From contig JAMYWO010000468.1 in assembly GCA_024220525.1 (NCBI GenBank), positions 1 to 23,985 of the forward strand: DNA of 23,985 nucleotides, in the 5' to 3' direction. The stretch's first letter is position 1. Each line of letters opens with the position of its first letter. The position numbers were made by a program, and so were the translations under genes. Positions 71 through 21,544 of this stretch are shown piece by piece. The notes beneath the pieces were generated by a model. That model searched no databases. It was not told the DNA's origin and saw only the letters and a list, made by a program, of their open reading frames with translations. This stretch comes from Cochliopodium minus. Its lineage: Eukaryota > Discosea > Himatismenida > Cochliopodiidae.

Positions 71-92
71 TTTTCATAAATTTAAAAATTAC

Positions 93-2570
93 CTTCTCCA
101 TTGTAATAAATAAATCCCAAGTTAAATAAAGCGACAGAATATCCTCCAAATGCAGACTCTTCGTACAATTCAATGGCCTTGTTCATGTCTTGTTCTACTC
201 CTGAAGAAAAAATTATTTTTAAAACAAAAAAAATTCGAAAAAAATTAAAAACCTTCTCCATGATGATAGAGATATGCCAAATTGTTTAATGCTGCCAAGT
301 TTCCTTTAGATGCAGATTTTTCAAAGTATTCTCTGGCCTTCTCATAACTTTGTTCAACACCTTTCAAATAAAAAAAAATTAATAAAAAAATTTCTAAAAA
401 ATTAAAAAATAAAAAATTGAAAAACAAATACAAAAATTAATAAAAAAACGATAAAGAATAACAAAAAAATAAAAAATTGAAAAAAAATAATAAAATAAAA
501 AAAAATAATAAAGAATAAAAAAAAATAAAAAATATTTATACCATTTCCGTGCTGGTACATGTGACCCAAATTACACATTGCAGTAGTGTCACCCTTTTCC
601 ATGGCCAACTCGAAGTATTCAATTGCTTTTTTAGGATCTTTTTCGACACCTTCACCGTAAAGGTACATCATACCAATGTTATTGATGGAATCAGGATTGC
701 CTAACAAAAAAAAAAAAATAAAAATTAAAATTTTGATCAAAAATATTTTATAAATTATAGATTAAATAAAAATGTGGTTTAAATTTTAAAAAAATTAAAT
801 AAAAAAAAATCTAAAAAAATTCAAAAAAATTTGAAATAGATTTTACTACCTTCTTTGGATGCTCTTTCAAAGTATTTTCTTGCTTTTTGATTGTTCTTCT
901 CGACTCCCACTCCGTATAGATGGATTTTTCCGAGGTAGTTTATTGCTTCGTCATTTCCTTTCTTTGCGGATAGTTTGAAGTACTTGATGGACTTTTCTGG
1001 GTCCACTTCAATTTCTCCGCAAATATAAATGAGTCCTAAAATAAACAACAAAAAGATAAATTGGATTAATAAATAATCAAAGAAATGAAAAAAAAACTTT
1101 TTAAAAAAAAATAATAAATATATTATTTTTTTTTAATCGAATATCAAATAAATGAAAAATAGTTTTAAACAAAAAATAAAGTAAAAATAAAATTAATGAA
1201 ATAAATGAAAAATAACAACAAAAGAAAAAAATAACATTTAAAAATGAAATTAAAGAATTTAAAAATGAATCTTTACCCAAGTTGTACATTGCATCAGTAT
1301 CTCCACTCAAAGCACAGATTTCGAAATACTCTTTCGCTCTCAGAATTTCTTTTTGGACATACTTTCCTTCGTAGAAGATCATTCCCAAAGTGTAGGTGGA
1401 GTAAAGATCTCCCATCTTGGAAGATTGATCAAAGTATTCTATTGCCTTCATTTCGTCTTTCTCAACTCCGTTTCCTTCCAAATACATGAGACCCAAGTTG
1501 TACATGGATGATGGATTTTTGAGTTTGGCTGATTCAGTAAGATATTTTATTGCCTAAAAAAAAAATTGATAAAAAAAATTTAATAAAAACAAAACGAAAT
1601 TTAATTAAAGTTACTTAATAAATGAAACTTTTAAACAAAATGAAAAAAAAAAAGAAAAAAAAACAAATGTAAAATATGAAAACAAAAGGAAAATATAAAA
1701 AATAATAAAATTCAAATGATTAAATAATTAATTATAATATGAAAAATAAAATAAAATATTATAAATAAATAAATGAAAAAAAAAAACAAGAAAGAAAACT
1801 TTATTACGACTTCAATGTTGGCTTCCGCTCCTTCTCCGTTAAGGTGCATCATTCCCAAATTGTTCATGGCTGCGGAATTTTGTCTCTTGCAAGATTCTTC
1901 GAAATAGAGTTTTGCTTTTCCTAAATCTATCTCCATTCCTTTTCCGTACTATTATCATGATAAAAAAAAAAAGAATTAAAAAGAAAATTTAATCGAATGA
2001 TAGGGAAAATTAAAATTTTTGAAATAATGAACTAGAAAATCTTTTATTTTAATAATGCTTCAAATATTTTATAAAGAGGAAATGAATCAGAAATTTGAAA
2101 TATTTAAAAATTAGTTTGATTTTTACCTTGTATAGAAGCCCCAAATAATTCATAGCAGATGAATTTCCTTCATTGGCTGATTTTTCGTAACATTCCAATG
2201 CTTTTTTTGGATCCTTTTCTACTCCCTCTCCCATCGAATACATATATCCTATCATCACAAGTGCTATAGGTGATTCCAAAGAGCTTGATTTTTTATCGTT
2301 TTCTATCACTTGATTGAAACATGACATGGCCTCCTTGAAATCCTTATCCTTTCCCCATCCATTGTAATATAACATTCCTTCTGCAAATTTATTTCCATCA
2401 TTGGATGATGTGTTGTATTTTTCTTTGGCTAGTTCTATGTCAATTGGCAATCCTATACCATAATTGAGATTATATCCTTCTATTGCATCATTCACTTTAG
2501 TAAAACATTTTGTTAGTAATGAATATTTGTGATTTCAATTGTTGCTTTGATTTTTATTACCTATTTCCAT
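93..2570 (-). CDS. Sel1-like repeat protein, 3' part beyond the window
   Basis: Partial minus-strand gene. Exons in order: 2570-2561, 2494-2127, 1948-1808, 1553-1277, 1035-850, 700-542, 360-253, 200-93, then an intron that leaves the window. The phase carries through all joins and gives about 452 residues. The protein is almost entirely Sel1-like repeats of about 36 residues, roughly twelve and a half copies of the type A-x3-LG-x-MY-x2-GEGVEKD-x3-A-x2-YF-x2-SA-x2-G. Sel1 repeats form alpha-solenoid scaffolds for protein-protein contact, often in ER quality control or signalling; nothing here says which. There is no signal peptide or membrane segment in the visible part. The start is the ATG at 2568-2570, because the frame upstream reaches a stop without another ATG; this makes a first coding exon of only 10 nt, so a different 5' end is possible. 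The family call is secure; the start is not. Confidence 0.88.
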
Positions 2571-3694
2571 ATCGTTTATTTTATGCAGAGGGTATTTGAA
2601 TTTATCTTCAAAATTTTTTTTTTTATTATTATTTTATAATGTTAGATCCTGAGTATTGAATTTGAGTTTGGGAAGATCATTCAATAATTTGTTACCTTTT
2701 ATTTAAAAAGTGATTAAAGATCCGATTTTTATATTTAATTTATTATTTATTTTTGAATAATATTAATTAATCTTTAATCATTCATCAAAAAGAAAAAATT
2801 TTGATTTTCCTCGACTTTAATTCAAAAACATTTGAATGATTTATTATTTTAGATCAAAACATTTTTCAATTTCGGAAATGTTTAAAAAAATAATCCTTAA
2901 TCTTTCAAAACTTGGGAAAGTTTCTTCTAATTGTGAAGGTATAATGTTAAAATGAATCCAGTTTAAAAATAATACGTTTTGAAAGTAAAATATTCAGAAG
3001 AATTATTTAATTGAATTAACAAGTGAATAATTATTGAATTCTTTACAACTTTGGAGTCAATTATGTGACAAGTAAATAAACAAAGTTTTTTGGACAAGAA
3101 GATTTATTTATTTAGTTTTTTTTTATTTTTCATTTTTTTTTTTAATAACTTTTATAACTTGGTTTAATTTCAATAAAAAAAACAATTTAGAAAACAAATG
3201 AATTATGAATTATCAATTTCTCCAATGTCTAAATTATTTATGATGTTTAAGGAATATTTATTTTTCAGAGAATTAATTTATTTTGCCCGACGTTGAAATT
3301 TTTTTTATTTCGAATTGTTTGAATTTATTTACAAATCTAATAACAACCCCAAAGAATCATTTTTTTGAATAAATTAGTTGAAATGATTTTAAAATTAAAC
3401 TTTATTAAAAGATCGGAGCTTTTTAAAGGGGGAGGAAAAATAAAACTCCTATCTCCAATTTCAGAGAATATCATTAGTGACAATTTCACTTGATGATGTC
3501 TAATTCAATCAAATTATGCTTTCATTTTTTTTGATTTTTTTTCAAATATTACCCAATAAAAAGAAATCTCTAACAATTGGAAACAATAAATTAAAAAATC
3601 AAAAATAAAAAAAATAAAAATAATTAAAAAATAAAAAAAATTTGTAGAGTATTCTTTTCAAAAGGAGTTTTTGTAATAAAATATTGGAAAAGAG
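2571..3694. other. Intergenic region between divergent genes
   Basis: About 1.1 kb separates the starts of the Sel1 gene (minus) and the ABC transporter gene (plus), so it should hold both promoters. It is very AT-rich with long T and A runs and stops in all frames. A short coding-like stretch lies on minus at about 2640-2690 (LLNDLPKLKF in one frame), but it has no ATG and no usable donor, so I did not attach it to the Sel1 gene. I see no clear TATA box, repeat or RNA gene. Confidence 0.6.
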
Positions 3695-6600
3695 ATGGAA
3701 ATGATATACGAGAAGAAAGTTGAAAAGAATGTCGAAGATAAAGCGAATATCTTCTCTCATTTGACATTATCATGGGCATCAGGGCTCGTGAGAAGAGGAT
3801 TTAAAAATGAATTGAAAATGGAAGATTTATGGACTGTATCGTATAAAAATCAAGCTGCAAATATTGAACCAGAATTAGAAAGACATTGGGCAACTAAGTA
3901 AGAAAACAAATGGAATTCAATTATTTCAAAAAATATCGTTGATTCAAGCATTTAAATACATTTTCTAATCATAATCCTATAATAATTCCCTTATTGAATC
4001 ATTTTTCGCCTATTTATTCATCACAATATTTTTATTAAAGCCAATCTGTATCGAAAATGGTATTGAAAACAGCATTCTCATTTGATTTTATAGTTAGCGC
4101 ATTATTATTTGCATTATGGGGTGAGAAAAATTTAAAATTCCTTCTAATTATTCCATAATCATTGAATTAACCACATATTCAAATCATAGGAGTATTTTTG
4201 GGTAAAAATAGAAAAAAAATTAACCTTGACAGAGTTAATAACATTTTATTAACTATAATTTCAATAAAACAAGTGATTGGACCTGCTGTATTTTTGAAGA
4301 ATCTTTTAAAATATCTCGAATTGCCATTAGCAGATAGAGAAGCAAGAGAATATCAAGGATGGATATGGGCAGCATTTTTTCCTATTAATCAAATATTGCA
4401 ATCAATATGTAATAATAAAGGATTGGCTATGATGGTGAAAAAAAAATAATAAAAAATTTGAGAATATTTGGAAATATTTATCTTTTTTAATATTTTTTAG
4501 CAAGTGGTCGGGATGAGAGTGAGATCTGGCCTTATGTCCATGATCTACAAAAAAGCATTGTCATTACAAAACGTAGATACGATAATGGGAGAAATTACAA
4601 ATCATATAACAAATGATTCAGATAGAATTTTCGAAGGGATAATGTATTAAAACAACAAATCATTCTATAATTCTCAATTTATTCAATATATTTTCCTTCA
4701 ATAAAAAAAAAAATCATTTAGGTTTGCTCATTTTGTATGGATAATTTGGTTTGTCCTATTTGCTTTGTTTGCTACCATTTATGTTGAAATTAAATGGTGT
4801 TTGTTTCCGGGTTTGGGAGTGATCGTCTTGTCCATTCCATTTCAAATGTTTATGGCAGGAAAGTTGGCAATATTCAGGAGATCAGGTAGAACAAAAATAA
4901 AATTTTTTTTTTCTTATTTTTTTTAAATCAACTTGATTCCTTTCTAGCTTTGATTTTTACAGACAAAAGAGTTCAAAGAATGAATGAAATCATTGTTGGT
5001 ATAAAGTTGGTAAAATTATATGCATGGGAAAACTCTTTCGCAGAATCCGTAGCAAATATTCGTCGTCAAGAGATCACCCAGCTTAGAAAGAGTGTTGCTA
5101 TAAACTCTGTAAATACAGTCATCTCTACATTGCCTCCTTTGGTTGCTGTGTTTCTTTCTTTGGTGACATACTTTTATACACACAATAACTTTAAAGCAAG
5201 TGTTGTCTTTACCACCATTGCACTTTACCAAGCAATCAAGTTCCCTCTCATGATGGGGTTTTATGGTATCATGAATTTCAGTCAAGCAAAAGTTGCCATA
5301 GCAAGAATACAAACCTTTTTGGACCGTCCTTCTCTTGAAAGCCACCTCCTTAAGGATCACGTTGAAGATAGTCATCTCAAGCTCGAAGAGGCTTCTTTTA
5401 AGCAATCTGGTCTTCCTGTTAAAGGCAAAAAAGCTGTTGGTATTGATAACAAAGTTTTTGAACTTAATGACATCAGCTTTGAAATAAAAAAGAAAGGATT
5501 GTTGATGGTTGTTGGGTAACAGTCTCCAGTTTTAATATCTTTTTAAATTAATTTTTTTAAAAATCAACAGGAGCGTAGGAAGTGGTAAAACAACTCTTTT
5601 ACATTCTATCTTGGGTGGATTAGAAAAAATCCAGGGGAAATTGCAAGTGAATGGATCTGTGGCTTATACTCCTCAACAAGCATGGATTGTTAATGTAATA
5701 ATTTTTTTTTTTTTAAAATTTTTAGTTCTTATTCCCTTTTATCTTATATTAGGGAACATTGAGAGACAACATCATTTTTGGATCAGAATATGATCAAGAG
5801 AGATTTGATGAAGTTTCTAGAGTGTGTGGTCTTGTTACTGACTTTGATATGATGCCTAACAAAGATTTAACTTCAATCGGAGAAAATGGAGGTAAAATAT
5901 AAAATGTTTTTATAATTTACTTTAAAATCCTTTTTTATTTAAAGTGAATCTTTCTGGAGGTCAAAAACAAAGGTATAAACATTAATTATCCATATTTTTT
6001 TTTCTAAATATGTTTTCTATTCAAAAAATAAATTCAAAGAGTTTCTTTGGCAAGAGCTGTTTATGCAAACAAGGATATTGTTCTCTTAGATGACGTTTTG
6101 AGCGCTGTAGATGCTAGAGTAGGAAAGGAAATCTTCAGCGAGTGCATCAGCGAATACTTGTCCGACAGAATAGTTGTATTGGTAACACATCAATTGCAAT
6201 ACTGCTCTCAAGCTGGTCGCATAATGGTTCTCAAAGATGGTAAAGTAGCTGGATTAGGGAGCTATGAAGAATTGATGGAGAACAACCAGGTCTTCCAAGT
6301 CATGATGAAGTCTTATTTATCCAACTTGGAAAAACAAGAAGAGGAGAAGAAGGAACAAAAACAAATCAAAAGAAAGTTGCACGTAGAAAGCACAATCAAC
6401 TTGGAAGAAAAAATAGAGAAGGATGAAGAAAGTATCATCGAGAGAGAAGACAACAAGATCGGAAACGTAGGAATTGGTATCTGGTTATCTTATTTGTACG
6501 GATTTGGGATCATTGCTCTTAATATCATCATCATTTTCGCTTTGACCAACGAAGCTTTTAGAACTTCCATCGATTTTTGGATCTCGGGTTGGGTCAACAA

Positions 6601-8868
6601 AAAATACAGCAATCTTTCTAATGGAATGTATGTTCTTGTCTATGGTATGCTGGTTGTTGGATACACCATCACTTTGTTCGTCAAGTATGTGATGTTTGCT
6701 TTCTTTTCTTTGAGATCTTCCATGATTCTCCACAACAAAGTGTTCAGCAGAGTTTTGAGAGCTACCACAAGATTCTTCGAAGCAAATCCTACCGGAAGAA
6801 TTTTGAACAGATTTTCTAAAGATATGGGTAAGAAAAAATTTTTTAGAAAAATTAAAATTCAAAAAATTCTTCTTTTTTTATTAAAGATGTTGTTGATACA
6901 AAGATCCCTTTTTCACTCCAAGAGTTTTTCTTCAATTTGATCCTTGTTAGCAGTGTTTTTGCAACTGTGGGTATTGTATTTCCGTGGTTGCTGATCGCTG
7001 TTCCAATCATGTTGGCCATCTTTCTTGTCATTGGAATTTTCTTCAGAAGGGCAATAAGACAAATCAAGAGACTAGAATGTAAATTTTTGTCTTTCTATTT
7101 TAACAATTTAATAATTTTTATTTTTTTTTTTGTTAGCTGTTTATCGTTCTCCAATTATTTCGCATGTTCAACAATCTTTGAATGGTCTTCTTTCGATTAG
7201 ATCTTTTTCACAAGAAAGCAGATTTTTTGACGTAAATCCGATATTAAGATTCAATACTTTCTCATTTAAACTTATTTTTATTTAATTTTTTAAAATTCAG
7301 ATGAACAATTTAAAAGTGGATGAGTGGATTCGTTCTTCATATCCTTTTTGGGCTCTCTCAAGATGGTTCGCAATGAGATTGGACTTTGTTTCCTCTTTCA
7401 TCGTAGCAGGAGCATGTTTAGTTGCAATCGGACTCAAAAGTACAAATCCTGCAAGTGCTGGTTTGGCAATTACATATTCCATGGTAAACAAAAAAAAATT
7501 TTCTTTCCTATTTTAATTTTCATTTTTAAAATTTATTTTTTATAATTTGTTTTCTTTTTTAAAATTTGTTTAATTTTTAATTTTTATTTTTTTATTTTGT
7601 TTTTTATTTTATATTTTTATTTTTTTACTATTTCTTTTTTCGATTTATTTATTTTATTTTATTTTATTTTTTCGTTTAGTTGATGAGTACTTTCTTTCAA
7701 TGGGCTATCAGAAACATGGTGGAATCAGAAAATTATATGACAAGTGTTGAGAGAATTTTGCATTATTCCAACAATGTACCAATGGAGCCACCTGCAATAT
7801 TAGAATCCAACAGACCTCCAGAGAACTGGCCAAGTGAGGGAAAAATAGAATTCAAGAACGTCTATGTAAAATACAGACCCAGTCTTCCTCCTGTTTTGAA
7901 GAACATCAACTTTACAGTGAGACCTAGAGAAAAGATTGCGATTGTAGGTAGAACAGGTGCTGGTAAATCGAGTTTTTGTTACACCATGTTCAGAATGATC
8001 GATCACGAGGGTTCCATTGAGATTGACGGAATTAATATTCAAGAGATTGGGCTTTATGATTTGAGATCCAATTTGGCCATCATTCCTCAGGATCCTGTTT
8101 TGTTTGCTGGTACGGTGAGATCAAACTTGGATCCTTTTGAGACTTATTCTGATAATGAGTTGTGGGAGAGTTTGCAGAAAGTGGAGCTTCAAGGTGCTGT
8201 ATACAAACTCAACGGAAGATTGGATGCTCAGATCACTGATAATGGTTCCAATTTCAGTGTTGGAGAAAGACAATTGTAAAACCTTTATTGTTTCAAAAAA
8301 AAAAAGTTTCATATTTTAATTAATGTTTGTCAATTTAAAAAAAAATAGGATTTGTATTGCTAGAGCAATTTTGAGAAAACCAAAAATTTTAATTCTTGAT
8401 GAAGCAACTGCAAATGTAATTTAATCTTAATCTTCTTTGATTTATCTTTTCTTAATACTGACCTTTTTTTTTTTAAAAAAGGTTGACACTGATACTGACA
8501 ACTTGATCCAAAGAACCATCAGAAAGAACTTTACCAACTGTACCACCATCACCATTGCTCATCGTATCAATACCATCATCGATTGCGACAGGGTCATCGT
8601 GATGGACAAAGGTGAGATTGTAGAGTCTGGAGAACCATACAAACTCCTTAACGAAACTAAAAAATCTTTTTACAGTCTTGTTTCTGAGACCGGTGAAAAT
8701 TTTACCAACCATCTTAAAAACTTGGCTTATGACGCAAAGATGAAAAAAGAGAACAACACTTTGGACAAATTTGAAGAAGAGAAGGAGCAAGGCAATTTGT
8801 GGAACGAGTTTATTCAGACTGAGATCTATTTGGAATCTTCAGAAGAGGTTGACAAGAAGAAAAACTAA
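3695..8868 (+). CDS. ABC transporter, ABCC/MRP-type full transporter
   Basis: Sixteen exons: 3695-3897, 4041-4120, 4190-4434, 4501-4643, 4722-4885, 4948-5515, 5571-5694, 5753-5891, 5945-5972, 6040-6827, 6887-7078, 7137-7231, 7301-7483, 7680-8275, 8349-8415, 8482-8868. They join in phase to 1333 aa. The N-terminus (residues 18-45) has the MRP pattern [14 protein letters not shown] then [10 protein letters not shown]1 covers about 75-400. NBD1 has Walker [10 protein letters not shown] near 468, signature LSGGQ near 558, Walker B IVLLDD near 580 and switch His in VTHQ near 613. As is usual in ABCC proteins, NBD1 has Asp where the catalytic Glu should be, so NBD2 probably does most hydrolysis. 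TMD2 is about 650-1000. NBD2 has [10 protein letters not shown] near 1072, signature FSVGERQ near 1175, ILILDEAT near 1200 and IAHR near 1228. Length and lack of a TMD0 match short MRPs (MRP4-like), which export organic anions, conjugates or cyclic nucleotides across membranes. The substrate cannot be read from sequence. The intron at 7484-7679 is nearly pure T-rich low complexity. Confidence 0.95.
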
Positions 8869-9076: not shown

Positions 9077-9771
9077 TTAATTCTTTTTAATTTTTCTTTC
9101 TTCTATTACAATTCTATTTTCAATCTCCTTTATTTTATCTTTTAATCTTATCTCCCTCTTTCCTTTTTCTACTATCGAAATGCATTGATCGAAAAGATCT
9201 GTTGGTATTCCAAAATATTTATATTTGAAATCTACTAGTATAATGTTAAAATACAATTCTTCTAATTCCTTATTGTTTTGTTTTGATCTTTGAGAAAGAT
9301 TAATTTGGAATTTAAATTAAATTTTCTTTTAAAAATTTTTGTTTTTGTTTTTTTTACAATGTCTTGATAATTTCGTTGAGATTTGATTTGGTTGTAACTA
9401 TTATGATATTTGAATAATTAGAAAAGTCTTTGTTATCCAAATTGATTTTAGATTTTGTTGCATTGACCTATACAAATTTTTCAATATTAACGATTATTTC
9501 TGTTATTTCTAGATATTTTTACCCTATCCAATTTCCATTTTGATTTGATGAATGTTGGATAAACAATATTTCTGATCAAGAAATGGGTTCTCTTTTCAAA
9601 ATCAACCAAAAACAGATTATCTTGTTTATTTTTCTCTACATTTTCTTTCAAATCGTATTTTGAGAGCTTATTTCTTTGATTATAGATTGATCTTATATCC
9701 AAGATTGATATTATGATGTATATCAAAACAATAGGAACACATAAAATCAAAAGAAAAAAAAAAGGAGCCAT
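9077..9771 (-). CDS. Small single-pass membrane protein with basic, helical C-terminus, unidentified
   Basis: Three minus-strand exons: 9771-9523, 9467-9358, 9287-9077, phases 0 and 2, giving 189 aa and a TAA stop. The last two exons contain no useful ATG, so a simple ORF scan misses them. The protein starts MAPFFFLLILCVPIVLIYII, a hydrophobic segment of about 22 residues (4-26) that could be a signal anchor or uncleaved signal. The following 160 residues are polar, with alternating beta-like pieces (NIIIVTT, FNIILVDFKY) and a strongly charged C-terminal helix of about 35 residues (GKREIRLKDKIKEIENR) with coiled-coil character. The ATG at 9771 is preferred because it places the hydrophobic run at the N-terminus; another in-frame ATG at 9822 would add 17 residues across a poly-lysine stretch. 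I do not recognise the family. It converges with the transporter and diverges from the RhoGEF gene. Confidence rests on the clean splice phases. Confidence 0.68.
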
Positions 9772-10194
9772 TTTTTTTTTTATATATGGGGAAAATTGAT
9801 CTCCCTCATTCACAATGATCAATAATAATAGATTATTGGTTCATTCAGGTTTTATTTTTGGATCATTTTTTGATAATACCAAATTGATTTTGATGAAAGA
9901 AAACATAAATCAAAGATACTACATTAATTACAAGTTATCATGGCAATTTTGATACATTTTGAAGAAATTTCTTGTTGGTTCAGAAAATGGGTCCTGATTA
10001 AATTATTACAAGGAAATCTCAAATTCATAATTAAAAATAAGCCAAATGATCCTATTTTCTAACCAATTCTCTACTTTATAACCATTTTTGAATATTTTAC
10101 AGTTTTAAATTAAAAAAAAAAAAAGAAAGAGCATTGCTGGAGATTATCATATCTTTGTCAAACTACTTTCTTTTCAATAATATCTATTTAAGAA
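9772..10194. other. Intergenic region between divergent genes
   Basis: About 420 nt between the starts of the small membrane protein (minus) and the RhoGEF (plus); it should carry both promoters. It is AT-rich, with stops in all frames and an A-run at about 10111-10124. I see no repeat, RNA gene or recognisable promoter motif. Confidence 0.55.
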
Positions 10195-13100
10195 ATGGAT
10201 AAAAATAATGAAATTTGTGGCATATGCAACGATGAGGTGACCAAGGAACACAATTGCCCAAAGGAAGAGATGAGATCCACCAGAGGAACTTTTAGAGAAA
10301 GAGGATTGGCGAATGCTAATTTCAAACCACCTCCCATCATGCATAAATCTGTTTCATCCAACAGTCTTATCCCATCTCAATCACCCAAAGAGAAGAGTAA
10401 AAATCTATTTAAAAATAGATTTCAAATACTTCTTATTTGTGCAAATAAACTTTTAACTTTTAAATTTCTATAAATAGTTAAATAGTTATAAATTAAACAA
10501 TATTTCAATAGATCTGAGAATTTTTCAAATCTAACCTCAAATAGCTGTTAATTTTTATTTAATTAATAAATTGAATTTAATCGAAACTATTATGCTTTAT
10601 TTTCATTTAGAATCACCCAACAAAGAGAATGGCACAAGGATATTCATAATCAAAGAATTAATTCAAACAGAAAAGACATATTTAGATGCTTTGCAGAATT
10701 TATTCGATACAAAGGAGATGATGATATCTAATGGGATCAAGGATAATCTCATAGATTCTGTATTTTTGAATGTGGAGATCTTACATAAGCTTCATGAGAA
10801 TTTATCAGGAGAATTAGAAAAACTATATGCAAATACTGAAAAAGATCCAATATTAGGTGAAGCTATAGGAAAAATGACACCATATATGAAGATGTATACA
10901 TCCTATGTAGACAGGTATAAAAAATATAAATATTGATTCAATTTTAAATTTCAAAAAATATTTTTTTTATGAATAGATATGATGAAACTATTGAAATTAT
11001 TAATGAAAATTTCAAAAATAATGAGAGATTTTCAAGGTTAGTTGAAGAAATAAAGTATGCAGGATTCAATGGGATGAATGCGTTGATGAGTTTAAGAATC
11101 ACTCCTATCCAAAGAATCCCAAGATATGTTTTACTATTGAGAGACTTGCTGAAAAACACTCCTCAGAACCACCAAGATTTTCAGTCAATCAAAAATGCAT
11201 TGGAAGCAGTTTCGGAAATTGCAACTTTCATTAATGAAAGAAAGAGTGTAAGTCAATCTAATAAAAGAATATTGGAGATAAATGGGAATTTAGTTGGAAA
11301 TCTAACTGTAAATTTTTTTTTTTAATATTACAATAATTTATCTTTTTTTTTTTTGAATAGTTATTGCATGACCCTTTCATCAACAGAAACTTTAAAACAA
11401 AGCATAAATGGGTTGTCTGTGGAAAGTCTGCAAAATGTAACCTTTGCTGTTGTGAAATCAAAAACAAAGGGTACAACTGTAGTGGTAAAAAAAAAAATTT
11501 TATTTTTTGGAATTTAACAAAATGTTAGAGTGCAAATTTCAGTCACACGGAGAATGTATAGAAAAGTGTTACCCAAATTGTGGTCAGCCTTTAAATGTAA
11601 ATAAAATTTAATTTAGTTTTATTCCTATTTATTTTTTTTGCAATTATTTAATGAAAGCCACCAAGTTTGCTTGTTCATAACAGAAAATATGTTACAGAGA
11701 TTGTTGTAATTCATTTGACAGACACAAACCTCAGCAATCAAAAAAGTACTGCTATTCTTTTCAATGATTGTGTAGCCATTTTTCAAATAAACGACAAAAA
11801 CAAGTATGAAATAATCGACATTGTACGATGGTTAAATCCCGCTTCACGGGTCCATACACATTTTATACAACAAAAAAATGTAATAACAATAAAGAATCCT
11901 TTAGACAATTATGAACACATCCTTTGCTTTAAAAATGAAGAAGAATGTTCCAAGTTTAATGTTTCTCTTAAAGATTCTTTTGAAAATTGGTTGGATCAAT
12001 ACCATAAATTGAATGAAAGAAAAGGTGTAAATGGAGAAGAGGTTGACAAACTTACCAAAATTTCAGTTTCTATTATTGAAGAAGAAAGCAATCCTGTAAA
12101 ACAATATTTATTTTTATTTTATTATTTTTGATAATAATTATTTTTAAAATTTAGTTATATGTTGTGACCACAATAAGAAAAGAAAGGAAATACAAAACCA
12201 CAAAAAATTTTGAGGAAATACAAGATTTTGTCAATATTTTGAAACAAATCTACGAGAACGAATGCATTCCAATGCTTCCCAAAGTAGTCAAAAAGAAAAA
12301 GAATTTGAAAAATGAGAGTAATTGTAAAGAAATAGAACAATTTTTCAATGTTCTTGTAAAATTGAAAGGAATCTTCAAATTACCTGAAGTGAAAAAGTTC
12401 TTTAGGGTAATCTCTGTGGTGGGGGATGTAGATAGAGAATTCAGATCTCTTTACTGTAAGCCAATGTTGAGCACGAGCTTCAAAACGTTTTTGAAAGATG
12501 AAAATGAAGATGTTTATAAAAGTTTGTTGCTTTGGTTGGATGTGGACAAGACCATTCATTTTGTTCGCTCTCTTCCTAAAATAAAGAAAAAAGCACTTCA
12601 GATCATTTCCACTTACTTTGATTCTTATTCTCAGTACTCTGTTTGTTCTTTGTTAGAGGAATCCATAATAACGGATATTAACAAAGACAAAGAGAATAAT
12701 CCTCCTTCTTTCTGCTTCATTTTTTCACGTGCAAGAAAGACCTTGAGGAAACATTTGAGGGAATATTTTGTAAAATTCCTCAACACATTCAAAAAATCTG
12801 ATTTAGATGAGATTCATTGTCAACTTGTAGTTATAAGCTCTTCTCAAAAAACATCTGAAGAATTTTCCAATTTCTGTCAAGAATCTGATGTGAGTAACGT
12901 TTCTGAATTTACTTTATGGAAACTTGTATCTAAATATTCTCCCTTTGATGCCCTTCTTACTTCTCCTATAAAGTTCAAAAAAATTTGTAAAGAGATTTGT
13001 GTTCTTTCTTCAGGCTTTTTGAGTGTTTTTTTACTCCAAAAGGTTCAGTTATTGTCGAATCAATCTTACTACAACTATGAAGATATCCTCGTTTTAGATG

Positions 13101-13198
13101 ATATCAGGAGAACTTCCCTTTTGAATCTCAAGTCTGTTGTAATTAATTTTGTGAACAGCAATACAAATTCTATTACCGATTCAAGATTTTTGATTTGA
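10195..13198 (+). CDS. Rho guanine-nucleotide exchange factor with DH, C1, PH-like, PX-like and RGS-like domains
   Basis: Seven exons: 10195-10396, 10611-10914, 10977-11307, 11361-11484, 11529-11596, 11658-12095, 12155-13198; 836 aa, TGA stop. Residues 1-67 are polar, with CGICNDEVTKEHNC near the start, a possible small zinc site. DH domain about 75-265: the conserved helix reads TPIQRIPRYVLLLRDLLKNT (from about 212). DH domains load GTP onto Rho/Rac GTPases. C1 domain about 294-340: H-x10-C-x2-C-x10-C-x2-C-x4-H-x2-C-x7-C, a zinc-binding, lipid or diacylglycerol type module. PH-like about 344-475 (AILFNDCVAIF start, helix ending SFENWL). PX-like about 490-575 (RKYKTTKNFEEIQDF, CIPMLPK, then KEIEQFFNVL), expected to bind phosphoinositides. 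RGS-like about 597-705 (FKTFLKDENED, LLLWLDV, and ARKTLRKHLREYFVKFLNTF). The last 130 residues are not recognised. DH and C1 are clear; PH, PX and RGS rest on short motifs and spacing. It would link G-alpha and phosphoinositide signals to Rho and actin at membranes. Confidence 0.9.
10401..10422. repeat. Perfect 10-bp inverted repeat next to a 5' splice site
   Basis: AAATCTATTT at 10401-10410 and its exact reverse complement AAATAGATTT at 10413-10422, with 2 nt between. It begins 4 nt after the GT donor (10397-10398) of the first intron of the RhoGEF gene. In the transcript it could fold into a hairpin beside the splice site. The arms are AT-rich, so chance is possible. Confidence 0.7.
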
Positions 13199-13363
13199 AT
13201 TTTTATTCACTTGATTATCTTGATAAGAAATTAAAAGATTATAAATACTGGAATTTTTGGGATTTTTTGCCACCCTTTGAGATTTGAATGATTATTTGTG
13301 GGATTTTACTTATTCCTATGATATCAATGTGAAAAAAATTCAATAAAAAATAATAAAAAAAAA

Positions 13364-14747
13364 ATGAAGAAATCATACAAACTATTTTCAGGAAAACTGA
13401 ATTATAAGACTATAAACTTTCCTTCAAAAGATGGAGTGGAATTATGTCTCCATCATTTGGAGCCAAAAGATAAATCAAAGTATATACTCTTCCCAATAAA
13501 ATATCTAGATATCAATCGTTAATTGACCCTTATTTTCAATAGCAAATCTCCAATATTGATGATTCCTGGCATATTTTCATCTGCATCATTTTTTTTAGGT
13601 AAAAAAATTAACGTATATATTTTTGATTGGACCAAATTGTTGATATAAAATCATTTTAGGAACAAAAAATAAAGGAATTGGAAAATACTTAAATGAAAAA
13701 GGATATCCCATTTATGTATTGGAAAGGTAAAAAAAAAATTCTTTTTCTCCTTTAAACACCTATCAAATAAATGATCGTTTTTAGAAGGGGTATTGGTCTT
13801 GCACAAAAAAGAAAAAAAAATGAAACTTGGCATTCTGGAGATTTGGTAGATGATGCTTGCAGTGCAATCGAAAAAGTAAATGAATTACACGATAAATTAT
13901 TCATAGTTGCTCACTCATGTGGTTCAGGTTAAAAATAAAATAAAAAAAACTAAATAATTTTAAAACTAAAAACTTTTAAAATACTTAAAACCTTGTGAAG
14001 GATTAACTTTGAGTTCTTTGGGTCATTACCCTCATCTTCAAAAACATATCAAAGGAGTTGTTTTGTCTTCAGTTCCTTATCCAAGAATCAAAAAATATGA
14101 ACCTAAAAGGTTTTATATTTATATTGGAATCGTATTGTCGAAAATTTTTGGTTATTTTCCTGCAAAATTATTGGGTTGGAGCAAAGGTATTTCAATTAAT
14201 TTTTTTAAAAAAAATTTTTCAACTTTGTTAAAAAAAAAGAAAATGAAGATTCACATGTTTATCAAACTTGGACGAAATGGCAACTTGAAGAAGTTAAGGT
14301 ATCTTTTTTAGTAATTTTTTGGAAAATTTTTCTTCCTTTCTTTTATTTAAAGTATAGATGTGATGGAAGGAAAATTGGTTATTTGGATAATCTTGCAAAT
14401 GTGAAAGTGGATATTCTTAAGATGACAGGCACGAAGGATCTCTTTTGGAGCAAGGAAAAGGACAGTAAACTTTTCTTTGATCACATTGGGAGTGAGAAAA
14501 AAATCTTTTATCACATAGGCAAAGATGGGTAAACAAAATGATTCTTTAATAATCTCTTTTTTAAATTCAATACTTTTATTTTAAATTTTATTTATTATTA
14601 TTCAATAGATACAAAATTGATCACGAAGGCAATAAAGAAAATCTTTTTTTTAAATCACATTATGATCATCCTGGTATTTTCACTTCTCCAGATTCTTCAA
14701 TCGAAGTATGGCCATTGATAGAAAAATGGATAGAAGATAGAAATTGA
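13364..14747 (+). CDS. Alpha/beta hydrolase (lipase/esterase-like)
   Basis: Eight exons: 13364-13479, 13543-13598, 13660-13726, 13785-13927, 14001-14186, 14240-14298, 14353-14528, 14609-14747; 313 aa, TGA stop. Fold order fits an alpha/beta hydrolase: early strand-turn PILMIPGIFSSASFFLG (about 40-57), a YPIYVLE strand, then IVAHSCGSG (about 121-129), whose A-H-S-C-G fits the small-x-Ser-x-small nucleophile elbow. The likely acid is the Asp of MTGTKDLFW and the likely base one of the histidines in SHYDHPG near the C-terminus. An inserted stretch after the nucleophile (FYIYIGIVLSKIFGYFPAKL) is hydrophobic and may be a lid or membrane-contacting helix. There is no signal peptide, so it is probably intracellular. 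The substrate cannot be told. It lies 165 nt downstream of the RhoGEF gene on the same strand; I see no reason to link their functions. The phase-consistent exons and complete triad make the family call firm. Confidence 0.85.
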
Positions 14748-15075: not shown

Positions 15076-18000
15076 ATGATTATGATACTTCAAAGGTCGA
15101 TTGTAATAATTCTATTGGCTTGTTTGTTGTGTAAAAATTAAATTTTGTGTTTCAATTAGATGTTTATTAATTTTTGAAATTCCTAGGTGATGGTTTGGAA
15201 GTGACTAGAATTGGTTATAGAAACAAATATTCTTATATTGGTATTGGAGAAGAGATAAATGGAACTATCTTCGATATATATTTTAACGATAGACTGTATT
15301 TGGATAACGGGAATAATTTGAGAGAATTCAATTCTTTTAATTTCACTTATGACTACAATAATCAAACATCATCTATCCCTGTATGCATGCAACCATCAAA
15401 TTATAATTGTCCGAGATTACCATCTGCTTTGTTGAATGTAGTAGGGATCTTCAAGATGGTATGTGGTAACAATGTAATTCCATCAACACCTCAAGCAGGA
15501 AGAATAGTCCCAATTATTGAGGGTGTAGGTAAAAAAATAATTAAATTTTTTATTCATATTTTAATTTTTGTGATTTTTCTTTTTTAATTATATTTTTTTA
15601 ACTCATTACAATTTGATCTTCACAAAGGGGGAAATAATCTTGGTAATTTTTTTCATAAGTTTGATCCTATTTAATCTATATAAATTATTTTTTTTCGGGA
15701 TAATTATTATCGTTATATTTGTTCAATTCTTATCAGATTATATCACCAAATAATACTATATTTTCAAATCGGAAATCATATGAGAAATATACATTTTTGT
15801 CTAACAAATTTTTTTTTTTTGAATATATAGATTTCATAATGCCTTTGAAACCAACCAATGATCCCATTTTATCTTTAACAATAGAACTAAAGTAAAATTA
15901 AATTTTTAAGAACTGGCAAAAATAAATATAAAAATAAAACTTGTATTAGATGGTTCAATGGAACTGATACATCACCGCTCGAAAACAAATTAAGTTTTTT
16001 CATTCTATCAACATATATAAATGGAGGAATCAAATATAATTTTGGAGCAAGGCCAATGGATTTCAGCAAATGTCATTTTGAAATAGATAATAATAAAGGA
16101 AAAACAGGAATGAGATTAGTGGGATCAAATAATCAGGTAATAAAAATTTTTCATTTCATTATAATTAAGAAAATATCTTATGAAATTTTCCATTCTCAAT
16201 ATGATAATGATTCCTCCTTTCATAATTTATATATATAATATAGACTATATCAAATATACAAAACATATCCCCAATAGCCAATGTGATAAATCCAACTTGC
16301 GATCCATACACTGCAAGTATAGCAAAAACAACAATATCCAACATCACATCTTCATTAATAAGTAAAAAAATTTTCCCTCTCTTTTTTTTTATAATTTAAC
16401 AATTCATCTCATCAGCTGCTTCAAATTGGGACATATTGACAGATTAGTAAATAATATTCATACATTTTTTTTTTTTTTATTTAATTAATATTAAATTATT
16501 TTATAGTCTTTGGTACTTTGGTTGGTACGCACTTTCTGACAATATCGAGGACTGTTATTTGTTCTTGGATAACAAGTTGCTATCAGGATACGGCACAGAA
16601 ACATACAACAGTACTTTATGTTTGGCTTCACCTCAAACACCCGAATATTTAAATGATCCATGTAATAAATTTTAAAATTAAATTAAAACTTTTTTAAAAC
16701 TATTTCAGGTTGCAACCCCTTTTTCTTTGCTTATGGTGAACAGTGTTGTCATGCTAGACCTGTCAACGACAATTATCAATACTTTTACAATGTCTCTTTG
16801 GACTCTATCAAGCAGTGTTCCAATTACACACAAACATTAAATTTGATGAATGATTATCTTTTTTTAAGAAACTCAACAGCAGATCCAATGAATGGTAAAA
16901 AAAGAATCAATTTTTACTTTAATCAAAAAATTATTTATTGTATTTTTTCCAAAAGGTTGCTCAAGTGGGAGTGATACTTTAACAAAGAATTCCATTGATG
17001 AAGAATATGACCAATTGTTTTCGTGTTTCAATAAGTTAAACGTGAGCTCTTGTTACACAAATGATGATTGTCCTTGCTCACAATGGTATCTTTTCTCTTC
17101 TTGATAATTATGTTCTTTTTTAAACTTTTATTGAAAAGTAATTTAAACTATTACGTTTGTGATCCTTGTTCAATCCAAAAACAACAAGAGTTTCTTGTGG
17201 GATGCTTTAATGAGTCTATTCCTGCATCCATTGAAAAGTAAAAAATAATAATAATCAAATTCTAATCAATTTTTACAAGTAAATTTTTGAACATAGTTTC
17301 GCAAGAGTTGTTTGGGTAATAAAAAAATAATTAGTTTTATATGTTTTCATTTCATTCGTTTTTTATTGAAATAGGGACTTACTACTGTAACAAAAGAAAC
17401 CTTTTTGAACAACTTTTATGAAAAAACTCTTATTACGAGTTGTATTTATCCAAATGGTACAGTGACAAATGAGAACTCAACTTCTTGCCTAAAACTTGGA
17501 TATTGTTTGACATCTGAAAATCTTATAAACGTCACAACAGAGAGTGAGTGTCAAAAAAAAGAAAATTTTGGAAGTTGTCTTGTTTGTGATGGGTCAAATG
17601 GGGTTTGTCTCAGATTACCTTTGGGAAGTTATTGTGCTGTAAACGATGTTAGAATTAATACATATGATATTTGTACTGGCTTTCATGGATTATTTTGGAA
17701 TGAACAGTTAGGGTAATATGTTTATGAAATAATAATTTTTTAAACCAAAATATTTTTTAGGCAATGTATGTATCCTTATTATTCTGAAGAAGAGTGTTAT
17801 TGTGGGACTGGAAATTCTTCTCATCTTGAATGTTTGAATGGTAATTAAAAAATTTAATTTTTAAAAATTTAGAATAGTTTTTTTTTTTTTGTTTCATTTA
17901 GGTCACTGCGAACTTCCTTTAACACAAAGTCAATGTATATTTGATATAAACAAAGATGAAGCATATAAATATTGGGACCCAGATTTGAAGAAATGCATAT

Positions 18001-21000
18001 CAAAAGTTAGCGCAGAATATGGTATTTTCAATGAAACATTTTTTATTTTTCCTTTAAATAATTTCTTTTTATTATAGCTTGCACTGTATACTTGCAAGGG
18101 AATTACGTTTTGGGAAGAAAGTGGATAGAACCTGATCAATCTCTTTTAAATATTACAACAAAAGAACAATGTGATTCTTTGAACTTATGCTTTGTGGATG
18201 GTAAACTTCAAAATGGAACTTGTGATGAAAGTAATTGCCAAGGAAATCAATACAGTTGTTTAAGCGGTAAAAATAATTCGATTTAATAAATTATTTCTCA
18301 TTTTATTTTCTTTTTAGATAAGGAAGATCCTTCTTATAGTTGTTTTAATAGTTCAATTACGAATGGGACAGAGTGTCTACTTCAACAGGGATGGTGGCAT
18401 CACAGAGGTATTGTTATCTTTTTTTATTTATTTTTTAAATTAATTTTTGATACCTAAAGATTTGATTTGTATCTTTATTCAATACAGCAAAGAGGAATGT
18501 CTTGCTAGAAACTTAACGTAAAAATATTTTGAAGCTTGTTTATTTATTTTTTCAAAATTTTTTTTAGTGTTGAAACATGTACCAGCATGAACAAGGAAGA
18601 ATGTGATGCTTGGTAATATTTTTTTTTTGATTACATTTCTTTTATTTTATATTTTTAGTGCAAGTTTTGATGTGGCAAATTGTCCTATTAGAAGCATGGA
18701 TACATTGTTTTGTAGATATGGGTATGATTTAAAAGTTAATCAATCCCTTCAAAAAGACGAATGTGAGACAAATGGATATTGTTACAATCAATATTACTTT
18801 CCAAGTAAATTATCATTTTTTTTTTGTTAAAATTTTTATTTAAACTTTTAAAAAAAATTCTAGGTTGTTTTTACAAGTAAACAATTTTATTTTATTTTTT
18901 TGTTTTAAAAAATTTTAAATTTATTTTTTTGATTAGATCCAATTTTATTGACACCAAAAATTGTCCAATTTGTTTATATAACTTTAGCTCAGAGTACACC
19001 GCAGTAAATCAATCTTCTTACAATTTTTTTACAGTGAATCAAATCGTTGAAGAATGGAATGTTCAAAAAATAGATATCAGATCAGGAAAGTATGGATGTA
19101 GTAACAGTGATAACTCTGAGAATAGTTGTATCGCAACTGGAGGTACTTGGTTGGAATCTTATTTGTCAAAGAGTGAATGTGAAGCACCTATGGGTTGTAG
19201 GGAAAATCCTTCCCAACATTGTACCAATTTTGATACATTAACCAACAAAACAAAACAAGAGTGTTCAAGGTGTGGAGGAGAATATGTAAAAAAAAAAAAA
19301 AATTTTGATTTTTTAATATTTTTACTTATATTTTATTTTTTTTATTAAATAGGTCCAAGTTTTTAATTGGAGGGGTGCACAGTATATTCCTGTCAAAAAA
19401 TTCTCCACATTTTGGTCAAACACAACATGGTCGCGAGCTAATCAATATGTTCCTGTAATATCAAGTTTGTCTTTACAACAACAAATCGTAAAGTTATTGT
19501 ACATTCAACCTGGTAAAAATGACAAAAAAAATAAACAATTAAAATTATATTTAATTTTTTAAATGAAGCTATATCTGTTGCATCTCAAATTCTTTGTAAA
19601 TCAAACTCTTTGTTCAGTTATCTCCAAATTATAACTTGTCTTTGTAACGGTGATACTTTGTCAAATGGATTATGTCAGAACCTCAACACTATTTCTGCAG
19701 ATATTGGTAGTCAACTCTTTTGCACAGGAGATGAAAAGAATGTGACATTTGGGTTTACACAGCTTAACATCAACAAAAACTCTGTTCCCATTTCATTTTT
19801 TTGTATCAACATGAGGATATCTTCTTTTGGAGCTTCTCAGTTTAGAAATCCTGCTGTTTTAGGAAATTCAGTTCTTTTAACTTCTTTGGCTTTTTTGAAC
19901 ATTCCTTTTGCTGTTGTCAAAAATAACAATGGTTATATTGGTAATAAAATTAATCTTTTTGTTTTATGAATTTATTATTATTTATTTTTTCGTTAAAGTT
20001 GGACAAATTTTAGGAGATGGAGTAGGAATAAATGTGACAAAATCTGATCTTGTCACATCTTCTGTAGTATCAAGAGCAAACTCGGACAATTCATACACCC
20101 TTTGCATCAAAAAGAGAGTTGACATCAACACCATATCAAGCAAATTTCCTCTTTTAGATTTTGCATCCTACGACACCCGACTCAGAAAATGGTCTCCATT
20201 GCAAACAACAGTAACATTTGATGGAACTAAATATTGTGGTATTGTAACCACAACAACCCAAGTGTTATTTCCGATCTCGTTAACAAATGATTGGGAAACT
20301 AGAAATTCTATTTTTGCTGACCGTTCTTCTGTACAATACATTCTTTATGTTTTGGGGGGAATCATGTTTGTGATGTTCGTTTTGTGTATCGTTGCAATCA
20401 TTGTCCATTTTGTTGATACAGCGTTGAAGTTTTCTGTTCCCAAGATCTGTCTCTTTTTCATCTTGGTTTACTCGCTTTTACGTGGTCTTTTTTTCGTTTT
20501 ATTTGCAAATGGAAAAATGCTGAAAATTTTGGAGAACAGGATTGTTGGATATTTAATTTTGGCAGAGTTGCCTTTTTACATCTTTTTGAGGTATTTTTTT
20601 TAAAAAAATTTTTTTTGTAGTATTTTTTTTTTAAATCAAATTTATTTAGTATTTTCATTTTTTTGGTGATTTTTTGGGGAGTAAGTTTAAAGATGACAAA
20701 CAGCGAAGCAAGGCATTTTATTATCCCAACTATTGTTACAAACATAATTCTGTACACTTTGTTTGTGATTGTTTGTATAATAAGTTCAACAGTAGGAGGA
20801 AATGGATCGATTGGTAATATTTTTTTTATTAAAAAAAAAAGTTCCATATTTAACAATTATTTATTTTAAAAAAGTGTTCAACAAAGTTTACAAATGCATT
20901 TTTGGTAAGAAATAATTTTTTTTCAAATATTTATTAATTCTATTGTTTTTTTTTTATAACACAGCTGGTATTGCTTTCTGCATTGTTCTATTCGCTTTTT

Positions 21001-21440
21001 ACTTTGGATTAGGACTGATAAAGAGACTATTAGCAGGATCTAAACTCCAAAATAAAGGAATAAATCCAAAACTAATAAAAGTAAAATAACTTGTTTTTTC
21101 TTTATTTTTTTTTACTAACTTTTTTTTCATTGAATAGTACACTGTAATTTTGTTTATTATTGCCATTGCTCTTTTGTTTCAAGTTTCTTATTTATTGTAC
21201 TCTGCCTTTTCAAATGGAAGCATTTCTTTGGCCATAGTTAACTATTTTTTGATGGAATCAGTTCCTATTGTCATCCTTTTCTTTTTCTTCGCCATTGTTC
21301 CTTTCACAAAGAAAGACTCGAGTGGATCTTCAAAGTTCAAGTTCACAAAATCATCCAACAAATTGTCTGAGGAGAAGTTTTCTGATCATTCTATTTCTAT
21401 GAAATCTCTTCCAAATACTCAATCAAATGTTGATAATTAA
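15076..21440 (+). CDS. Large cysteine-rich surface protein with C-terminal seven-helix domain (THH1/TOM1/GPR137-like)
   Basis: Twenty-nine exons, 1520 aa, TAA stop. Exons: 15076-15130, 15187-15528, 15628-15642, 15831-15891, 15950-16136, 16244-16361, 16416-16446, 16507-16661, 16709-16894, 16956-17085, 17139-17237, 17297-17315, 17375-17712, 17761-17840, 17902-18021, 18078-18266, 18318-18407, 18460-18517, 18568-18612, 18659-18804, 18864-18876, 18937-19285, 19353-19512, 19569-19940, 19999-20590, 20650-20813, 20875-20904, 20965-21080, 21138-21440. Residues 1-18 are a signal peptide (MIMILQRSIVIILLACLL). Residues 19-1230 are an ectodomain rich in Cys (densest about 320-960) and in N-x-S/T sites. 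About 1231-1475 hold seven hydrophobic helices; helices 2-3 read SLLRGLFFVLF, then AELPFYIFLRSIFIFLVIFW, like the LP-FF-LL-FWA pattern of THH1/TOM1/TOM3 and GPR137. A Ser/Lys-rich tail of about 45 residues follows. Likely a plasma-membrane receptor or adhesion protein; no ligand can be named. The 15-nt exon 3 and the start of exon 18460-18517 are the least certain joins. Confidence 0.85.
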
Positions 21441-21486
21441 AAATTGAAAAATATTATTTATAAAAAACTTTAAATTTGTTGAAAAT

Positions 21487-21526
21487 AATGATATTTGATT
21501 CATTCAATTTGGAATCAAATATCATT
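21487..21526. repeat. Perfect 15-bp inverted repeat (hairpin) upstream of the beta-propeller gene
   Basis: AATGATATTTGATTC at 21487-21501 and its exact reverse complement at 21512-21526, with a 10-nt loop. It sits in the 104-nt gap between the stop of the seven-helix gene and the preferred ATG at 21545 of the next gene. Arm 1 contains an in-frame ATG (21488-21490), which the stem would mask in RNA. It may be a 3' end or 5' UTR structure; its role is unknown. Confidence 0.85.
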
Positions 21527-21544
21527 GAAAATATTAAAAAAAAA

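What the first reader, a model, noticed from the sequence alone, without database searches (positions are those of the whole stretch)
10195..13198. Rho exchange factor with order DH, C1, PH, PX, RGS
In most Rho GEFs a PH domain directly follows the DH domain. Here a complete C1 zinc pattern (all eight metal ligands, split across exons 11361-11484 and 11529-11596) sits between DH and a PH-like segment, and PX-like and RGS-like segments follow. RGS with DH-PH is known from p115-type RhoGEFs (RGS at the N-terminus), and RGS with PX from sorting nexins such as SNX13. Both combined, with a C1 between DH and PH, is not an architecture I know. It would put G-alpha sensing, two lipid sensors and Rho activation in one chain.
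Basis: partly seen in the sequence, partly recalled or inferred. Interest (0 to 1): 0.78.

Follow-up and report, generated by a model that had tools for sequence, protein, structure and literature searches.

The report
RhoGEF with C1, PX, RGS domains
An unidentified AT-rich eukaryote appears to encode a single protein that joins a Rho-activating enzyme domain to a zinc finger, a probable PH domain and a PX-RGS tail, an unusual combination of known parts whose lipid- and G-protein-sensing residues look altered.

Summary
Seven exons (10195-13198, +) splice through six GT-AG introns into one 836-residue frame. Pfam supports RhoGEF (5.9e-38), PX (1.1e-5) and RGS (2.6e-7, seen only on a trimmed segment). 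A complete eight-ligand zinc pattern lies between DH and the next domain; it scores as C1 (7.7e-4) below Pfam's cut-off. PH is the weakest assignment: two sub-threshold RhoGEF-PH matches and a low-confidence model with PH-like strand order. The order DH-C1-PH-PX-RGS in one chain is probably real.

The proposed function, G-alpha sensing plus two lipid sensors, is only partly supported. C1 spacing is atypical; the PX arginine for PI3P aligns with Asn; two RGS asparagines that contact G-alpha align with Ser and Cys (roles recalled). RGS joined to DH-PH is also known from Entamoeba and Naegleria. PX with RhoGEF is described as rare. Ten literature searches brought no report of this combination in what I read.

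Verdict: a new architecture of known domains in an unidentified eukaryote, without relatives in the collections searched. Moderate interest.

The parts
10195..13198 (+). whole gene, 7 exons, 836 aa
   Evidence: splice model with one open frame
10195..10396 (+). exon 1: N-terminal tail with C8-x2-C11-x7-H19-x-C21 motif
   Evidence: no Pfam match (protein 6)
10646..11235 (+). DH (RhoGEF) domain, aa 80-255, across the intron 10915-10976
   Evidence: Pfam PF00621 5.9e-38, profile 1-180 of 180; DH of FGD6, a putative Rho/Rac GEF (8zlf), ECT2, intersectin and Vav in the PDB
11403..11484 (+). C1 domain, first part (aa 294 to the intron)
   Evidence: eight-ligand pattern; Pfam C1_1 7.7e-4, below cut-off; NORE1 C1 0.0014
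11529..11581 (+). C1 domain, second part (to aa 338)
   Evidence: as above; C319/C322 straddle the intron
11679..12011 (+). probable PH domain, aa 351-461
   Evidence: sub-threshold PH_BUD3_C 0.048 and ECT2_PH 0.075; low-confidence single-sequence model with 7 strands and then a long helix; 12 of the 50 Foldseek rows shown are PH or DH-PH chains
12054..12095 (+). PX domain, likely first strand, aa 476-489 (end of exon 6)
   Evidence: position before the Pfam match; inference
12155..12409 (+). PX domain, aa 490-574 (start of exon 7)
   Evidence: Pfam PF00787 26.3 bits, 1.1e-5, cut-off 21.6
12458..12814 (+). RGS domain, aa 591-709
   Evidence: Pfam PF00615 31.5 bits, 2.6e-7, cut-off 23.9, profile 11-110 of 117; own RGS profile 15.2 bits, 0 of 2000 shuffles as high
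12815..13195 (+). C-terminal region, aa 710-836, unassigned
   Evidence: only Pfam match Nodulin 0.039, below cut-off (protein 5); borderline hydrophobic stretch aa 770-788

Best explanation
The gene encodes one Dbl-family exchange factor of a eukaryote (organism unidentified). The DH domain would load GTP onto a Rho/Rac-type GTPase. A small atypical C1-type zinc module is inserted in the linker between DH and the probable PH domain, and a C-terminal PX-RGS pair carries the targeting and regulatory surface. Most likely working: exchange by DH (inferred, likelihood about 0.85). C1, PH, PX and RGS act mainly as protein-contact and autoinhibitory or targeting modules. The RGS binds an active G-alpha without classical GAP activity (about 0.35-0.4), as an effector-type RhoGEF; lipid binding through PX or DAG binding through C1 is less likely (about 0.3 and 0.1). 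What is shown is the open frame, the domain profiles and the residue differences. What is inferred is every biochemical activity.
For: One open frame over seven exons, with GT-AG introns and an exon/intron GC contrast. Codon preference trained on ORF pieces of the neighbouring ABC-transporter gene picks the chosen frame in 5 of 7 exons. RhoGEF 5.9e-38. PX 1.1e-5 and RGS 2.6e-7 on trimmed segments. Of 10 shuffled segments in the same library (4 RGS, 4 PH, 2 PX), none matched RGS, PH or PX, and their best chance match was 0.0041. An own RGS profile scored 15.2 bits on the RGS segment with 0 of 2000 shuffles as high; it stays at 13.6-15.8 in 8 of 8 leave-one-out profiles, and of 92 ORFs of the window the RGS exon is best (12.1 against 5.9 for the next). 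It picks 1 of 6 segments of the protein. Eight C1 ligands, 0 of 20000 shuffles. NORE1/RASSF5 (0.0014, 0.0023), PKC-delta (0.038), Vav (0.28 and up), DGK-delta (0.34) and PKC-theta (0.55) are among 18 PDB matches of the C1 segment.
Against: No transcript and no relative: 3 viral-contig scans and 1 genome-contig scan found none, so conservation is untested. The codon score fails in the two short C1 exons, and in exon 5 the chosen frame is the lowest of the three. PH has no match above any cut-off, and an own PH profile gave 3.3 bits with 11 of 1000 shuffles as high. Shuffled segments reach E 0.004-0.15 in unrelated families, so the PH E-values of 0.05-0.075 are in the noise and only the identity of the families (both RhoGEF PH) counts. 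An own small PX profile did not detect the PX (1.6 bits, 100 of 1000 shuffles as high). RGS was missed by Pfam in the full protein and in a 249-aa piece, and the own RGS profile scores only 9.8 bits in the full protein. The trimmed boundaries were chosen by eye. Both structure models are poor (pLDDT 45.6 and 42.8), and Foldseek on the RGS model listed 24 matches, none an RGS. Several residues for PI3P, DAG and G-alpha contact are not kept.
Confidence: 0.72

Rival explanations
1. Two genes or two transcripts: a DH-C1-PH protein ending just after 12095 and a separate PX-RGS protein.
For: If the 59-nt intron is retained, the frame stops at 12131, giving a DH-C1-PH form, so alternative forms are possible.
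Against: The first in-frame ATG of exon 7 is at 12272, inside the PX match, so a separate gene starting in exon 7 would lose half of PX. The 59-nt gap has GC 0.07 and GT/AG ends like the other introns and leaves little room for a promoter and terminator (inference). The likely first PX strand lies in exon 6 (inference).
Confidence: 0.1
2. The zinc module is not a true C1 but another zinc fold inserted in the DH-PH linker.
For: C1_1 scores below Pfam's cut-off (19.7 against 26.5 bits), and H-x10-C is two shorter than the x12 of classical C1 (recalled). The PDB matches also include unrelated complement C1r and IcmE chains.
Against: Eight ligands in C1 order. The two best PDB matches are NORE1/RASSF5 C1 domains, and PKC-delta, Vav, DGK-delta and PKC-theta are also among the 18. 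C1_1 and C1_2 are the only two Pfam matches of the trimmed segment.
Confidence: 0.12
3. The C-terminal PX and RGS are degenerate scaffolds without lipid or G-alpha binding, and the protein is simply a RhoGEF with inert ancillary folds.
For: PX Arg to Asn507; RGS E87/N88 to Lys611/Ser612 and N128 to Cys653 (alignment; residue roles recalled).
Against: Both folds still score above Pfam cut-offs. D163 and R167 of RGS4 are replaced conservatively by Glu and Lys. SNX14's RGS binds G-alpha-s without GAP activity (passages of PMC7956473), and RGS-RhoGEFs bind activated G-alpha (passages of PMC3499586, PMC9283941).
Confidence: 0.4

Closest known systems
Naegleria fowleri RGS-RhoGEF (PMC9283941)
   Same: RGS and DH-PH in one protist protein; a G-alpha effector candidate
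   Different: also has leucine-rich repeats; no C1 or PX is mentioned in the passages and section read; [quoted passage not shown]
Entamoeba histolytica EhRGS-RhoGEF (PMC3499586)
   Same: RGS and RhoGEF in one amoebic protein, binds activated G-alpha
   Different: in the passages read no C1 or PX is mentioned; order of domains not seen in the text, RGS first is recalled
p115-RhoGEF / LARG / PDZ-RhoGEF
   Same: RGS-type domain plus DH-PH
   Different: RGS-homology domain N-terminal to DH; no C1 between DH and PH, no PX (recalled)
SNX13/SNX14/SNX25, Mdm1, Aspergillus RgsC (PXA-RGS-PX-PXC)
   Same: RGS and PX in one chain
   Different: order RGS then PX, with PXA and PXC/Nexin_C; no DH in the order given (PMC7956473 passages; PMC5660106 abstract)
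Vav (CH-DH-PH-C1)
   Same: DH, PH and an atypical C1 in one GEF
   Different: C1 follows PH (recalled); here it lies between DH and PH

Membership tests
Dbl-type RhoGEF | complete DH domain | tested here: met
   PF00621 131.3 bits, cut-off 27.6, profile 1-180 of 180
Dbl-type RhoGEF | PH domain directly after DH (usual, not universal) | tested here: not met
   a C1-type zinc module lies between; the following PH itself is only probable. I treat it as a variant within the Dbl family, whose defining feature is DH
Dbl-type RhoGEF | exchange activity on a Rho/Rac GTPase | not testable with these tools
   DH Glu in TEKTY and Asn in FINER are present; their role is recalled
C1 domain | eight zinc ligands in C1 order | tested here: met
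   H294 to C338, 0 of 20000 shuffles
C1 domain | Pfam cut-off | tested here: not met
   19.7 of 26.5 bits
PX domain | Pfam cut-off | tested here: met
   26.3 of 21.6 bits on the trimmed segment; 21.9 on the full protein
PX domain | PI3P-binding arginine | tested here: not met
RGS domain | Pfam cut-off | tested here: met
   31.5 of 23.9 bits, trimmed segment only; no match in longer pieces
RGS domain (GAP-active) | G-alpha-contact Asn residues (N88, N128 of RGS4) | tested here: not met
   Ser612 and Cys653; residue roles recalled
PH domain | fold of seven strands and C-terminal helix | tested here: inconclusive
   predicted order agrees but pLDDT 42.8; Foldseek E at best 0.03, query TM at most 0.28 in the 50 rows shown
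RGS-RhoGEF (G-alpha effector) | RGS plus DH-PH in one chain | tested here: inconclusive
   RGS and DH pass Pfam; PH sub-threshold; no transcript
RGS-RhoGEF (G-alpha effector) | binds activated G-alpha | not testable with these tools
   needs protein
SNX-PXA-RGS-PXC | PXA, RGS, PX, PXC in that order | tested here: not met
   PX precedes RGS; no PXA or Nexin_C among the Pfam matches

The most novel reading that the evidence does not exclude
A RhoGEF class in which a zinc module separates DH from PH and an independent PX-RGS tail, in reverse order to sorting nexins, couples an active G-alpha on an internal membrane to Rho activation, evolved apart from both the p115 family and the Entamoeba/Naegleria RGS-RhoGEFs.
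Probability: 0.2. Interest if true: 0.6.

Novelty: new variant of a known kind. Interest (0 to 1): 0.36.

Why it matters
In most Dbl proteins the PH domain sits against DH and helps exchange (recalled). A zinc module between them would show that the tandem can be separated. A differently ordered joining of RGS with RhoGEF would also bear on whether G-alpha-to-Rho wiring arose once or several times in eukaryotes. Protist genomes contain many one-off domain combinations (recalled), so without orthologs the weight of this single case is limited.

Tried and rejected
Relatives: full protein, exon 7 and DH in viral contigs and full protein in genome contigs gave none; each scan rests on six 8-residue patterns, so divergent relatives would be missed. 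Metagenome contigs has a cap of zero and was not scanned. No whole genome is held. ARAGORN found no tRNA and Rfam no family at its gathering score in the window. phmmer of the RGS, PH and PX segments against the PDB gave 1, 5 and 11 matches, none relevant. NCBIfam gave one irrelevant match for three pieces (gatC 0.51). Structure prediction without relatives was too poor to use for RGS and only suggestive for PH; DDB1 propeller chains make up most of the 50 PH-model rows shown and are read as generic beta structure. Own PH and PX profiles from four sequences each were too weak.

Considered and rejected: separate PX-RGS gene (first in-frame ATG inside PX); membership in the SNX-RGS family (order and partner domains differ); canonical DAG-binding C1 (spacing).

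Full report
What was claimed.

The gene. I rebuilt the model from the sequence. Seven exons join into one frame of 836 codons ending in TGA at 13198. The six introns are 214, 62, 53, 44, 61 and 59 nt, all GT..AG, none a multiple of three. Exons have GC 0.30-0.40 and introns 0.07-0.17. An in-frame TAA stands two codons upstream of the ATG. A codon score trained on ORF pieces of the neighbouring ABC-transporter gene prefers the chosen frame in 5 of 7 exons. The two exceptions are the two short Cys-rich exons, and in exon 5 the chosen frame scores lowest of three. Those two exons have independent support: the eight metal ligands fall into place only after the 44-nt intron is removed, because the pair C319-x2-C322 straddles it.

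DH. Pfam RhoGEF matches aa 80-255 over its whole length at 5.9e-38. The best PDB relatives are FGD6, a putative Rho/Rac exchange factor (8zlf), ECT2, intersectin and Vav (60 of 66 matches shown).

C1. H294-x10-C305-x2-C308-x10-C319-x2-C322-x4-H327-x2-C330-x7-C338; a loose form of the pattern has no match in 20000 shuffles of the protein. Pfam C1_1 gives 0.35 in the full protein and 7.7e-4 on the trimmed segment, 19.7 bits against a cut-off of 26.5. phmmer on the PDB gives 18 matches up to E 10: NORE1/RASSF5 C1 (0.0014, 0.0023), PKC-delta (0.038), Vav (0.28 and up), DGK-delta (0.34) and PKC-theta (0.55), besides unrelated complement C1r and IcmE chains. The middle loop has 10 residues; the alignment to PKC-delta needs a three-residue gap there. 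By recall this is the spacing of atypical C1 domains such as that of Raf, which do not bind diacylglycerol.

PH. This is the weakest part. In the trimmed segment the only Pfam matches are PH_BUD3_C (0.048) and ECT2_PH (0.075), both PH domains of RhoGEF proteins, both far below cut-off. Shuffled PH segments reach 0.0055-0.15, but in unrelated families. My own four-sequence PH profile gives 3.3 bits, reached by 11 of 1000 shuffles. AlphaFold2 on the single sequence gives pLDDT 42.8 but the order of a PH domain, seven strands and a long helix, followed by a short helix and strand. Foldseek lists 12 PH or DH-PH chains among the 50 rows shown of 1206 matches, alongside many DDB1 propeller chains, the best E being 0.03 and query TM-scores at most 0.28. 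Together with the place after DH this makes PH probable, not shown.

PX. Pfam PX passes its cut-off narrowly on the full protein (21.9 against 21.6 bits, 2.6e-4) and on the trimmed segment (26.3 bits, 1.1e-5). A small own PX profile failed to detect it (1.6 bits, 100 of 1000 shuffles as high). In a MAFFT alignment with SNX3, SNX12, p40phox and SNX1, the arginine known (recalled) to contact PI3P aligns with Asn507.

RGS. Pfam found nothing in the full protein or in the 249-aa piece, and a PDB phmmer found nothing relevant. The trimmed 119-aa segment matches Pfam RGS at 31.5 bits, 2.6e-7, over profile positions 11-110 of 117; I take the earlier miss to be an effect of HMMER's filters on longer pieces (inference). 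An own profile of eight RGS domains scores 15.2 bits on a 141-aa segment, against at most 7.8 in 1000 shuffles and none as high in 2000; in the full protein it scores 9.8. None of the other five segments of the protein scores above 0.7, and of 92 ORFs of the window the RGS exon is best (12.1, next 5.9). So the RGS assignment stands. In the alignment, RGS4 E87/N88 and N128, which contact G-alpha (recalled), face Lys611/Ser612 and Cys653, while D163 and R167 face Glu and Lys. Classical GAP activity is therefore unlikely. Foldseek on the poor RGS model listed 24 matches, none an RGS.

One chain or two. Exon 7 has no in-frame ATG before 12272, which lies inside PX; a separate PX-RGS gene starting there would lack half its PX. 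Retention of the last intron would stop the frame at 12131, so a shorter DH-C1-PH form is possible.

Most likely working. A Dbl-type exchange factor whose DH domain loads a Rho/Rac GTPase, with the other domains controlling place and activity. The residue differences argue against reading each module as an active sensor. The RGS may still bind G-alpha without GAP activity, as reported for SNX14 (passages of PMC7956473), or may be a scaffold. All of this is inference from the sequence.

Comparison. RGS joined to RhoGEF is known outside animals: EhRGS-RhoGEF (passages of PMC3499586) and a single RGS-RhoGEF in Naegleria fowleri with a DH-PH tandem and leucine-rich repeats (passages and section 4 of PMC9283941). 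RGS with PX is known in sorting nexins and in fungal RgsC, but as PXA-RGS-PX-PXC (passages; abstract of PMC5660106). A survey of PX proteins lists RhoGEF and RGS among PX-associated domains and says RhoGEF rarely co-occurs with PX (passages of PMC2837644). An abstract of 2026 counts about 62 DH-type RhoGEFs in E. histolytica (PMC13327543, listing; the passages seen mention RGS and FYVE GEFs only), so variety of GEF architecture in amoebae is expected. Ten searches of the held library brought no paper whose title, abstract start or passages read describe C1 between DH and PH, or DH, PX and RGS in one chain. Seven papers were opened, in passages, one section or abstract; most listed papers were not opened, and subscription papers and sequence databases of eukaryotes could not be searched. 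No relatives were found in 3 scans of viral contigs and 1 of genome contigs, collections not made for eukaryotes.

Surroundings. The window looks like a compact AT-rich eukaryotic genome (GC 0.23-0.36 in 1-kb steps). Neighbours by ORF pieces: Sel1-repeat protein, ABC transporter, a possible small minus-strand membrane protein, a hydrolase-like gene (by eye), a Cys-rich protein with several hydrophobic stretches, a PQQ-type propeller-like protein. The organism was not identified.

Verdict. Architecture probably real and, as far as could be searched, unreported; functional reading only partly supported; new variant of a known kind.

Noticed in passing
15171-21437 (+): Cys-rich ORF pieces followed by four raw ORF pieces with 11 hydrophobic 19-residue windows in all, some probably in translated intron: looks like a large surface protein with several membrane spans, two genes downstream of the GEF. 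No Pfam match better than 0.68 in the 9 pieces scanned.
   Followed up: partly
3680-8865 (+): ABC transporter gene in intron-split pieces; two pieces scanned gave ABC_membrane 5.7e-13 and ABC_tran 4.1e-18.
   Followed up: partly
85-2534 (-): Sel1-repeat protein split by introns (Pfam Sel1 1.2e-15 and 2.4e-16 in the two pieces scanned).
   Followed up: partly
9080-9840 (-): Possible small membrane-anchored protein on the opposite strand just upstream of the GEF (ORFs, one hydrophobic stretch; only Pfam match Baculo_11_kDa 0.023, below cut-off). It would make the 5' region of the GEF a shared divergent promoter.
   Followed up: partly
10195-10260: N-terminal C8-x2-C11-x7-H19-x-C21 motif of the GEF, a possible short zinc knuckle; no Pfam match.
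   Followed up: no
12815-13195: C-terminal 127 residues of the GEF are unassigned; borderline hydrophobic stretch at aa 770-788.
   Followed up: no
13360-14744 (+): Intron-split gene that by eye resembles an alpha/beta-hydrolase; no Pfam match in the three pieces scanned.
   Followed up: partly
21480-23000 (+): PQQ-type beta-propeller-like protein (PQQ_2 0.0019, below cut-off, in one of three pieces scanned), with a hydrophobic start by eye.
   Followed up: partly
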